Origin: Clostridium ljungdahlii
GTDB lineage: Bacteria; Bacillota; Clostridia; Clostridiales; Clostridiaceae
Direction of reading: 5' to 3'
DNA: 64,000 nucleotides
Assembly: GCF_001636845.1 (NCBI RefSeq)
Contig: NZ_LITT01000065.1
Location: forward strand, 62,001 to 126,000
Shown: one piece after another, positions 15,922 to 43,892 of the stretch
How positions within the stretch are numbered: the first letter of the stretch is position 1
Layout of the letters: each line of letters starts with the position of its first letter
The notes under the pieces: model-generated
What the model was told of the DNA's origin: nothing
Databases searched by the model: none
What the model saw: the letters and a program-made list of their open reading frames with translations, nothing else
Program-made: the position numbers and the translations under genes

Positions 15922-16107
15922 GTGGGAAATCCAGCCAGCAGAATATCAAAAGCAAAAAGAGACTCAAGAAGAGCACAGACTTTTAAATTAGGTTTACCAG
16001 GTTTAGTTGAGTGTCCTCAGTGCCATGAAATGAAACTTGCACATAGAGTTTGTAAGAATTGTGGATATTATAAGGGTAAGGAAATCATTTCAACTGAAAA
16101 TAAATAA
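15922..16107 (+). CDS. rpmF: 50S ribosomal protein L32
   Basis: This 61-residue protein starts at GTG with [18 protein letters not shown], the L32 opening. Two CxxC pairs (CPQC and CKNC) form the zinc site. A GTG nine bases upstream lies in the AAGGAGGTG ribosome site and was rejected. The gene is followed at once by a strong terminator. Confidence 0.97.
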
Positions 16108-16136
16108 AAGAAAGTCATTTGACTTTCTTTTTTTGT
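16107..16136 (+). terminator. Terminator after rpmF
   Basis: AAAGAAAGTCA and TGACTTTCTTT form a perfect 11-bp stem with a 2-nt apex (loop about 4 nt in practice) followed by T-rich sequence. Confidence 0.9.
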
Positions 16137-16148
16137 TCATGGGGTCTA

Positions 16149-16381
16149 TAAACAGAGTTCTTGGTATCAGATGGAGTTTTGACTCCACATGATGCTTATT
16201 AACAGGATTCTTAGTGCTTTAGCACTTAGAAGGCGTTATCCTTTAGGAAAAATCGTTATCCAGGGACGTAGCTGTTCTTTACTCCTACTTTGAGAAAAGC
16301 AGATATCCCAAATCTTTGATTTGGTGATAGTCGCTTTCGCTGTGTACGTGGGGGTATTAGAACAGGTAGTCATCGGATAAA
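16149..16381 (+). repeat. Structured intergenic repeat, copy A (233 nt)
   Basis: The segment recurs inverted at 43709-43892, sharing both ends (TAAACAGAG and GGATAAA). It folds into three helices. P1 is GTATC/GATGC plus TGGAG/CTCCA (16164-16195). P2 is TTCT/AGAA plus AGTGC/GCACT (16208-16231). P3 is a long arm closed by TTATCC/GGATAA (16256-16261 with 16375-16380), containing GAC/GTC, CTGTTCT/AGAACAG and TACTCCTAC/GTGGGGGTA. The P3 apex carries about 49 extra bases relative to copy B, including a CCAAATC/GATTTGG hairpin. It lies between the rpmF terminator and plsX in the same orientation as plsX. I cannot match it to a known RNA or mobile family. Confidence 0.8.
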
Positions 16382-16435
16382 AATTAGACCATATTAAGTA
16401 ACAAAGGTCCAGATTATAGGATAGGATGTGAAAAT

Positions 16436-17449
16436 ATGATAATTGCTGTGGATGGTATGGGAGGAGATTTTGCACCTTGCGCTGTAGTGGAAGGTGTGGT
16501 AGAAGCAGTTAAAAAGCAAAACGTAAATATAATAATAACCGGCCAAAAAGAGCAAATTGAAAATGAATTAGCTAAATATAATTATCCTAAGGACAAAATA
16601 GATGTTTTAAACACTAAAGAGGTTATAACTACAGGTGAATCCCCGGTTATGGCTTTAAGAAAAAAAAAGGATTCTAGCTTAGTTAAAGCACTTAATCTTG
16701 TAAAAGAAGGTAAAGCAGATGCTATTATATCGGCAGGAAGCACAGGGGCATTTATGGCAGGTTCCACTTTAATTGTAGGGCGAATTAGAGGGGTAGATAG
16801 AGTAGCATTAGCTCCTATAATGCCGGGGAAAAATGGAGATTTTATGGTAATAGATGCAGGAGCAAATGTGGACTGTAAGCCTCAGTATTTGCAGCAATTT
16901 TCTCTTATGGGCAAGATATATTTTGAAAGCATACTAAAAGTAAATAACCCATCTATAGGCCTTATAAATATAGGTGAAGAAGAAGAAAAGGGAAATGAAC
17001 TAGCTAAAAGTGCATATAAACTTTTGAAAAGCATGGACTTTAACTTTGTGGGAAATGTAGAACCGAGAGATGTTACTAATGGAGATGTGAACGTATTAGT
17101 TTGTGATGGAGTAGTAGGGAACACAGTTTTAAAGATGTATGAAGGAGTAGCGTTAAATTTATTTTCTATGTTAAAAGAAGAGATTATGAAATCCTTTAGC
17201 AGTAAGTTGGCAGCTTTTATTTTAAGACCTGCTTTTAAAAGTTTAAAAGGTAAATTGGATTATACAGAATATGGTGGTTCTCCTTTTTTAGGATGTAAGG
17301 GCATATGTGTAAAGGCTCATGGAAGTTCTAATGGAAAAGCTTTTAAAAATGCAGTAATGCAAGCCATAAGCTGTTATGAAAATAATGTTGTTGGTAAAAT
17401 AAAATTTGAAATAGAAAAAATACATAATGTAGAAAGTAATAATATATAA
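16436..17449 (+). CDS. plsX: Phosphate acyltransferase PlsX
   Basis: This 337-residue enzyme makes acyl phosphate from acyl-ACP, starting phospholipid synthesis with PlsY. The N-terminal DGMGGDFAP and the central [12 protein letters not shown] and [12 protein letters not shown] segments are family signatures. The ATG follows AGGATGTG. Neighbours rpmF upstream and acpP downstream match other Firmicutes, but no fapR precedes it. The unusual feature is the structured repeat filling its 5' flank. Confidence 0.97.
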
Positions 17450-17567: not shown

Positions 17568-17801
17568 ATGATTTTTGAAAAAATACAAAAAATAATATCT
17601 GAACAACTTGGAATTGGCTCTGATGAAATAAAAATGGAATCATCTTTTATTGACGATTTAGGTGCAGATTCCCTTGACATCGTTGAGTTAATAATGGCTC
17701 TTGAAACAGAGTTTGATATTGAAATACCAGACGAAGAAGCTGAAAAGGTAAAAACAGTGGGAGATGTAGCTGAGTACATAAAAGCTCATACTGAAGAATA
17801 A
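17568..17801 (+). CDS. acpP: Acyl carrier protein
   Basis: This 77-residue acidic four-helix protein carries growing acyl chains. The phosphopantetheine attachment site is Ser35 in [10 protein letters not shown]. The ribosome site is TTGGAGG. It has its own promoter and terminator, so it can be made in excess over plsX and rnc. Confidence 0.97.
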
Positions 17802-17816
17802 ACAGAGTATATGCTT

Positions 17817-43708: not shown

Positions 43709-43892
43709 TTTATCCGATGACTACCTGCTCTAATACTCCCACTTTTCCAAGTGGAAGTAAAGAGCAGCTATGTCTCTGGATAACGATTTCCCCTAAAGGA
43801 TAACGTCTTCTAAGCGCTAAAAGCACTAAGAATCCTGTTAATAAGCATCCAGGTGGAGCCAAAACTCCATCTGATGCCAAGAACTCTGTTTA
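43709..43892 (-). repeat. Structured intergenic repeat, copy B (184 nt, inverted)
   Basis: Read on the minus strand this copy follows copy A at 16149-16381 almost base for base and shares both ends. The P3 stem here is CTGCTCT/AGAGCAG (43761-43767 with 43725-43731) instead of CTGTTCT/AGAACAG, a true compensatory change. P1 and P2 changes keep pairing through G-U. The P3 tip is a simple CCACTT-GGAA-AAGTGG hairpin, where copy A carries about 49 additional bases. It is antisense to cdsA and dxr. Confidence 0.8.

What the first reader, a model, noticed from the sequence alone, without database searches (positions are those of the whole stretch)
16149..16381. Dispersed structured repeat with a compensatory base-pair change (copy A)
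The segment recurs inverted at 43709-43892, 27 kb away, with shared ends. Both copies draw the same fold: two hairpins and a long arm closed by TTATCC/GGATAA. In the arm, pair T275-A362 (16275 with 16362) is C-G in copy B (CTGTTCT/AGAACAG against CTGCTCT/AGAGCAG). Other differences keep pairing by G-U. This suggests selection on an RNA or single-strand DNA fold rather than passive decay. I cannot match it to a known class. It could be a non-autonomous mobile element, perhaps of the palindrome-ended IS200/IS605 kind, or a small RNA family that spreads.
Basis: partly seen in the sequence, partly recalled or inferred. Interest (0 to 1): 0.75.

Follow-up and report, generated by a model that had tools for sequence, protein, structure and literature searches.

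The report
Clostridial mobile hairpin repeat family
The two look-alike segments belong to a large family of short folded DNA repeats, not found in the RNA-family library searched, that have jumped around the chromosomes of many clostridia, landing mostly at the sequence ATAAA without carrying any gene of their own.

Summary
Segments A and B are two of at least 49 copies in this genome. A covariance model of the arm gives 129 matches in one complete relative, G006, and matches in 81 of 206 Clostridiaceae genomes and seven further families. No Rfam 15 family matches.

It is mobile DNA. For 23 of 38 copies tested, a related genome has a readable empty site: 17 contain ATAAA and 6 are one base off. 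Variant bases at five sites place the join at A^TAAA, without target duplication. Copies are modular (about 132, 182, 233, 285 nt).

The fold is real, but compensatory changes do not prove selection: two copies show template-switch homogenisation of the arm, and G·T pairs (70) do not significantly exceed A·C (55). A new coupling: the left end (TNAAC or TNAAG) changes together with an internal GTTATCC or CTTATCC, which also pairs with the right end.

Best explanation: a non-autonomous element moved as folded single strand by an IS200/IS605-type (HUH) enzyme in trans. Mobility is shown; the enzyme is inferred, and no partner gene was identified.

The parts
16149..16377 (+). Copy A of the element (type 1, both left-hairpin units and one loop module)
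16378..16381 (+). TAAA of the target site; between the same flanks G008 reads ACAAA and G006 reads ATAAA with one extra A beside it
16149..16153 (+). Left terminus TAAAC, able to pair with the internal GTTA
16163..16196 (+). First left hairpin (GGTATCAGATGGAG/CTCCACATGATGC)
16199..16241 (+). Second left-hairpin unit TTAACAG...GTTATCC; absent from the ~132-nt copies and similar in layout to the first unit
16255..16261 (+). Internal GTTATCC ('guide-like' word), able to pair with the left end or with the right end GGATAA
16256..16380 (+). Long arm closed by TTATCC/GGATAA; includes three target-site bases
16296..16347 (+). Loop module of about 53 nt (limits approximate); other copies carry none or two
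43713..43892 (-). Copy B of the element (no loop module)
43709..43712 (-). TAAA of copy B's target; empty site ATAAA in both relatives
17798..17802 (+). ATAAA where G006 carries a ~132-nt copy and this genome has none; the next five bases also match the element's left end, so loss here by deletion is not excluded

Best explanation
It is a short, gene-less, modular transposable element that inserts once, without duplicating the target, between the first and second base of ATAAA on the strand drawn (3' of TTTA on the other strand). SHOWN: fixed ends, precise empty sites, target preference, recent proliferation, modular internal structure, conserved fold. INFERRED: a trans-acting HUH (Y1) transposase of the IS200/IS605 type recognises the subterminal hairpins on single-stranded DNA. 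Also inferred: the internal S-TTATCC word works like the guide of that family, pairing in turn with the left terminus (TNAAC or TNAAG) and with GGA+TAA at the right junction, and so fixes cleavage points and target. Size variants arise by slippage across the hairpins and by module gain at the loops (inferred).
For: Empty sites: 23 of 38 tested copies have a relative with the flanks joined by one ATAAA-like word. 17 contain ATAAA in at least one relative (13 exactly, 4 with a small length difference beside it); 6 are one base off. Background is 0.54% of five-base words, 0.93% in AT-rich windows. Five targets with a variant base (GTAAA, ACAAA, AAAAA, ATGAA, ATAAG) put position 1 on the left flank and positions 2-5 on the right, hence A^TAAA. 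Type 2 copies begin TCAAG, not TAAAC, yet in 3 of 7 tested the empty site is readable and contains ATAAA (2) or AAAAA (1). Head-to-tail tandems with 129-130 nt spacing occur in Haloimpatiens lingqiaonensis and C. simiarum. In G173, 14 of 16 copies read differ from a reference copy at 0-3 of ~130 positions and sit in different flanks. Left end and internal word change together: of 154 copies with an xTTA word, 143 form a Watson-Crick pair at the variable position (C-G 106, G-C 36, T-A 1), 4 a wobble, 7 a mismatch. Fold: 97.8% of cells paired; 86 double-change cells against a mean of 31 in shuffles and 2-23 in slid controls.
Against: No partner gene was identified. G006 (complete, 129 arm matches), G004 and the MAG G153 have no Pfam Y1_Tnp match at E <= 0.001, although G006 has one RAYT-like protein match at E 5.9e-7 that I did not see in the row list and could not inspect. 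Of 60 Y1 loci, one lies beside a clear element and one beside a weak match of 19.6 bits. RAYT-like matches are not clearly associated with the element: 49 of 81 element genomes against 61 of 125 others, p = 0.12; stricter set 28 of 81 against 27 of 125, p = 0.053. Replication-strand bias is weak: 76 against 53, p = 0.05. Some sites do not follow the split-target rule: L059 (ATATA in G006, but TAAA to the right of the copy; ATAAA can be read two bases off) and L061 (ACAAA to the right of the copy, ATAAA in a diverged G006 site). A class seen in C. magnum has CGAATCC in place of STTATCC and still lies beside GGATAAA, although those copies were found through that very sequence. In IS608 the guide lies just 5' of the hairpin foot; on the strand that target logic predicts, the word here lies on the other side.
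Confidence: 0.55

Rival explanations
1. An RNA-level mobile element or small-RNA family: the transcript folds, and is copied or reverse-spliced into A^TAAA sites by pairing of the internal TTATCC with the target; the fold is conserved as RNA.
For: Strong conserved fold with covariation; the internal word can pair with both junctions; conserved unpaired stretches.
Against: G-T pairs do not significantly exceed A-C in the arm (70 against 55, p = 0.21; decay after insertion could blur this). No Rfam match. No strict orientation to neighbouring genes: of 41 copies with both neighbours called, 18 (+,+), 12 (-,-), 8 (+,-), 3 (-,+) (crude ORF calls). No reverse transcriptase link was looked for.
Confidence: 0.15
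2. A double-strand 'cut-and-paste' MITE moved by a DDE transposase, with ATAAA as target duplication.
For: Both ends of type 1 copies read ATAAA.
Against: Type 2 copies lack ATAAA at the left, and five variant targets are split, not duplicated. No terminal inverted repeats in the alignment.
Confidence: 0.04
3. A folded-site recombination substrate (integron attC-like or another tyrosine or serine recombinase) inserted by a site-specific recombinase of the host.
For: Imperfect hairpin with conserved bulges; no target duplication; head-to-tail tandem copies.
Against: Dispersed insertions at many genomic A^TAAA sites rather than arrays at one attachment site. No recombinase was tested as a partner.
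Confidence: 0.12
4. The family is the cognate REP of the RAYT-type Y1 enzymes found in many of these genomes.
For: RAYT genes of G005, G017 and one of two copies in G173 lie within about 200 nt of an element. In most copies GTAG precedes the inner arm hairpin on the drawn strand.
Against: The RAYTs of this genome and of G173 appear to have different repeats of their own beside them (read by eye). The paralogous RAYT in G173 has an empty ATAAA site. In G017 both elements sit in a decaying comM-like gene. Element-rich G003, G004 and G011 have no RAYT-like match.
Confidence: 0.14

Closest known systems
IS200/IS605-derived palindrome-associated elements (PATEs)
   Same: Short, gene-less, subterminal hairpins, no terminal inverted repeats, no target duplication, insertion beside a fixed short word (family features from passages of PMC7290912 and PMC6006769)
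   Different: No parental IS with the same ends found; three element-rich genomes have no Pfam Y1_Tnp match; one internal word appears to serve both ends
REP/REPIN repeats with RAYT (TnpA-REP)
   Same: High-copy hairpin repeats; GTAG beside a hairpin; RAYT genes in many of the same genomes
   Different: Several times longer than the 20-40 bp given for REPs (abstract of PMC3733652 in a listing), fixed target word with precise empty sites, no consistent RAYT neighbour
BOX elements of Streptococcus pneumoniae
   Same: Modular small interspersed repeat with a variable number of internal units, highly folded, no gene (passages of PMC3049150)
   Different: BOX is described as having terminal inverted repeats likened to ISSpn2; none here. 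Sequence comparison with BOX was not made
Clop-1 / Clot-1 stem-loop families of C. perfringens and C. tetani (tables in passages of PMC2267715)
   Same: Clostridial repeat families with conserved stem-loops
   Different: Sequences not available to me, so identity with this family is not tested; listed sizes are 93 and 74

Membership tests
IS200/IS605 (as non-autonomous derivative) | No terminal inverted repeats and no target-site duplication | tested here: met
   23 readable empty sites of 38 and five split variant targets; ends
IS200/IS605 (as non-autonomous derivative) | Insertion next to a fixed tetra- or pentanucleotide | tested here: met
   17 of 23 contain ATAAA, the other 6 one base off (background)
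IS200/IS605 (as non-autonomous derivative) | Subterminal hairpins at both ends | tested here: met
IS200/IS605 (as non-autonomous derivative) | Guide word at the 5' foot of the hairpin pairing with cleavage site | tested here: inconclusive
   Left end and internal word change together, but the geometry is not that of IS608 and the CGAATCC class departs
IS200/IS605 (as non-autonomous derivative) | A parental tnpA/tnpB element with the same ends | tested here: not met
   2 of 60 Y1 loci have any arm match nearby, one of them weak; no Pfam Y1_Tnp match in G006, G004, G153. tnpB was not searched for
IS200/IS605 (as non-autonomous derivative) | Bias to the lagging-strand template | tested here: inconclusive
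   76 against 53 in G006, p = 0.05
REP/REPIN | Repeat flanks a RAYT gene | tested here: inconclusive
   Adjacency in G005, G017 and G173; most RAYT or Y1 loci scanned have none
Rfam 15 families | Score above gathering threshold | tested here: not met
   0 matches in the window; the three matches at E up to 5 in 16000-16500 all lie outside the element
DDE-type MITE | Terminal inverted repeats and target duplication | tested here: not met

The most novel reading that the evidence does not exclude
A self-guiding miniature element: one seven-base internal word (GTTATCC or CTTATCC) base-pairs alternately with its own left end and with the host target at the right junction. The element thereby programs where a borrowed enzyme cuts, and a paired change in word and end creates a new specificity. 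The enzyme may be of an unrecognised kind, since the element is abundant in a complete genome with no Pfam Y1_Tnp match and only one weak RAYT-like match.
Probability: 0.22. Interest if true: 0.82.

Novelty: new variant of a known kind. Interest (0 to 1): 0.62.

Why it matters
An abundant, recently mobile, structured repeat runs through many clostridia (among them C. ragsdalei and C. carboxidivorans, gas fermenters by my recollection), is missing from Rfam 15, and was not seen in the listings of my literature searches. It offers dozens of precise insertion differences between close species and a testable case of base-pair-guided target choice. It is also a warning that compensatory changes in dispersed hairpins can come from template switching rather than selection.

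Tried and rejected
Known RNA family: no. DDE MITE with duplication: set aside because of the split variant targets. RAYT or TnpA as obvious partner: adjacency in G005, G017 and G173 looked promising, but those of this genome and G173 appear to sit by their own repeats, G017's lies in a decaying comM-like gene, and co-occurrence is not significant. Replichore bias and gene-orientation bias: weak. One-strand RNA signal from G-T against A-C: not significant. Spread by phage or plasmid: no match in either collection, nor of an exact 17-mer in viral contigs. A viral-contig search with the neighbouring plsX protein gave nothing and was of no use. Gene-bearing copies between the same ends: a motif scan of 331 loci found 23 left-end-like and 70 right-end-like sequences without a partner within 400 nt (all 23 and the first 60 of the 70 were printed); I did not pursue each, and recognised no gene-bearing element. 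ISfinder, R-scape and tnpB were not tested.

Full report
WHAT IS THERE. Copies A and B exist as described and fold as described. BLAST of the window's own assembly with either copy gives 59-60 match pieces (40 candidates scored each). In the 42 stretches I read there are 49 merged places longer than 100 nt. The ends are the same in most copies: ATAAACAGAGTTCT at the left and ATCGGATAAA at the right. A second type begins ATCAAGTGATTCTTAGG. Sizes cluster near 132, 182, 233 and 285 nt. The differences are modules: a second left-hairpin unit of about 50 nt, present or absent, and a loop module of about 53 nt in none, one or two copies. 28-nt forms also occur (the tail of L050 and the site L110 in G008): the left end joined to the right end at the shared CATC, as expected of slippage across the hairpins.

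MOBILITY. I joined 75-nt flanks of 38 copies and searched the two closest relatives, G006 and G008, then read the candidate empty sites. 23 of 38 copies have a readable empty site; the other 15 were occupied, diverged, deleted or unmatched. In 17 of the 23 at least one relative contains ATAAA: 13 exactly between the flanks, 4 (L001, L058, L071, L081) with a small length difference beside it. The other six read ATGAA, GTAAA, ATATA, ATAAG, ACAAA and AAAAA. ATAAA makes up 0.54% of five-base words in a 400-kb sample of G006 and 0.93% of AT-rich windows. Five variant targets show how the word is shared out: GTAAA (L054, both relatives) has its first base on the left flank; ACAAA (L067), AAAAA (L068), ATGAA (L045) and ATAAG (L060), each from one relative, have theirs on the right. 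So the element is TAAAC...CGGA (type 1) or TCAAG...CGGA (type 2) inserted at A^TAAA, without duplication. Exceptions: L059 reads ATATA in G006 while TAAA lies to the right of the copy (ATAAA can be read two bases off), and L061 has ACAAA at the right against ATAAA in a diverged G006 site. At L001, L056 and L073 the two relatives disagree, so one has changed. G006 carries a copy where this genome is empty, at 17798-17802; there the empty site reads ATAAACAGAG, ten bases shared with the element's left end, so loss in this genome is also possible.

SPREAD AND AGE. A covariance model of the arm (R1, 40 sequences) gives 129 matches in G006, where 150 candidates were scored. It matches in 81 of 206 Clostridiaceae genomes and 23 of 46 genera at E <= 0.001 (at most 23 scored per genome). 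In an even draw of the class it matches in 26 of 391 genomes at E <= 1e-5, 13 of them outside Clostridiaceae, in seven families. In G173 I read 16 copies, picked from the best-scoring list: 14 differ from L365 at 0-3 of about 130 positions (6 are identical), L350 and L351 at 8 and 6, and all sit in different flanks. That points to recent activity. No match was found in 72,556 plasmid or 50,697 phage records, and none for an exact 17-mer in viral contigs.

FOLD AND COVARIATION. In the 26-sequence alignment 97.8% of cells pair; 13 of 54 pairs show a change on both sides, with 86 double-change cells against a mean of 31 in shuffles and 2-23 in slid controls. Between lineages the same arm pair is G-C, C-G or U-A, and so on. 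This supports a real, kept fold. It does not by itself show selection. In L069 the 5' strand of the arm has become the exact complement of the 3' strand (20-bp perfect), and in L019 the 3' strand matches the 5' strand instead. Both look like template switching at a quasi-palindrome, a process reported to make compensatory changes (abstract and opening of PMC8794818). Nor does the arm show a significant one-strand RNA signal: G-T 70, A-C 55, p = 0.21, over 173 distinct rows after dropping the 12 lowest-scoring of 119 rows in one alignment and duplicate rows in both; these alignments were fitted to the model. Decay after insertion would blur such a signal.

A COUPLED END AND INTERNAL WORD. Just before the arm lies GTTATCC (type 1) or CTTATCC (type 2). 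The right end GGA plus target TAA pairs with TTATCC. The left end TAAAC or TCAAG can pair with GTTA or CTTA, leaving the second base out. Of 221 arms, 165 had a left end I could assign by motif, and 154 of those had an xTTA word. The variable pair was C-G in 106, G-C in 36, T-A in 1, wobble in 4 and mismatch in 7. In 42 of these the assigned 'left end' is the start of the second internal unit, which follows the same rule. Eleven others do not have an xTTA word (six have CGAA, as in C. magnum), and 56 arms had no assigned left end, 15 of them with CGAA. Copies related by descent count many times; the switch is seen in at least three settings (type 2 left ends, the second unit in C. mobile, G017).

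MECHANISM. On the other strand insertion is 3' of TTTA, and the element ends in TTTA or TTGA. Hairpins lie near both ends. That is the logic of the IS200/IS605 family: hairpins, a short target word flanking one end, guide pairing, no duplication (passages read in PMC6006769 and PMC7290912). But the partner is missing. Pfam Y1_Tnp is found in 10 of 13 genomes of the genus and not in G004, G006 or G010, and in 17 of 18 element-bearing relatives, not in G153, which is a MAG by its contig lengths. Of 60 Y1 loci scanned, one has a clear element beside it and one a weak match. RAYT-like proteins occur in 49 of 81 element genomes and 61 of 125 others (p = 0.12); G006 is among the 49 on a match of E 5.9e-7 only, whose place was not listed. 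The RAYT genes of this genome and of G173 appear to have other repeats beside them (read by eye). In G173 one of two RAYT paralogues has an element about 90 nt upstream while the other has an empty ATAAA. Strand bias along the G006 chromosome is weak (76 against 53, p = 0.05). I therefore hold HUH-type movement in trans as the best explanation at about 0.55, with mobility itself near certain.

NOVELTY. No Rfam 15 family matches the element. The listings of my literature searches for clostridial dispersed or folded repeats show no description of it. One 2008 survey lists stem-loop families in C. perfringens and C. tetani whose sequences I could not compare (passages), and the finished C. autoethanogenum genome paper speaks of repeats only in general in the passages I saw. 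ISfinder could not be searched. I file it as a new variant of small non-autonomous structured repeats.

Noticed in passing
L010 1462-2010 (own genome, contig C12): A RAYT-type Y1 gene flanked by copies of a different short repeat (core ggtgcctgtcac), apparently its own REP family (read by eye).
   Followed up: partly
L201 963-1553 and 5583-6173 (G173); L393 1483-2181 (G017): RAYT-type genes sit in or beside a broken comM-like (Mg-chelatase-like) gene in two different genera; G173 has two similar RAYT copies with a repeated palindrome around them.
   Followed up: no
L122 1468-2055 and 2041-2227 (G005): The RAYT open frame ends inside the left end of an element copy.
   Followed up: partly
L286 57-135: A contig labelled Acholeplasmataceae MAG carries an arm scoring the same as several Haloimpatiens lingqiaonensis copies (92.4 bits), perhaps a misbinned contig.
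   Followed up: no
L167 (first hairpin) and copy A 16296-16347: A loop module of a similar kind appears at the tip of either hairpin in different copies and can be tandem, as if it were itself gained at hairpin loops.
   Followed up: no
window 17798-17802: G006 carries a copy exactly at the TAA that ends a small frame after plsX (acyl-carrier-protein-like, read by eye); several copies in this genome also abut the end of a reading frame.
   Followed up: partly
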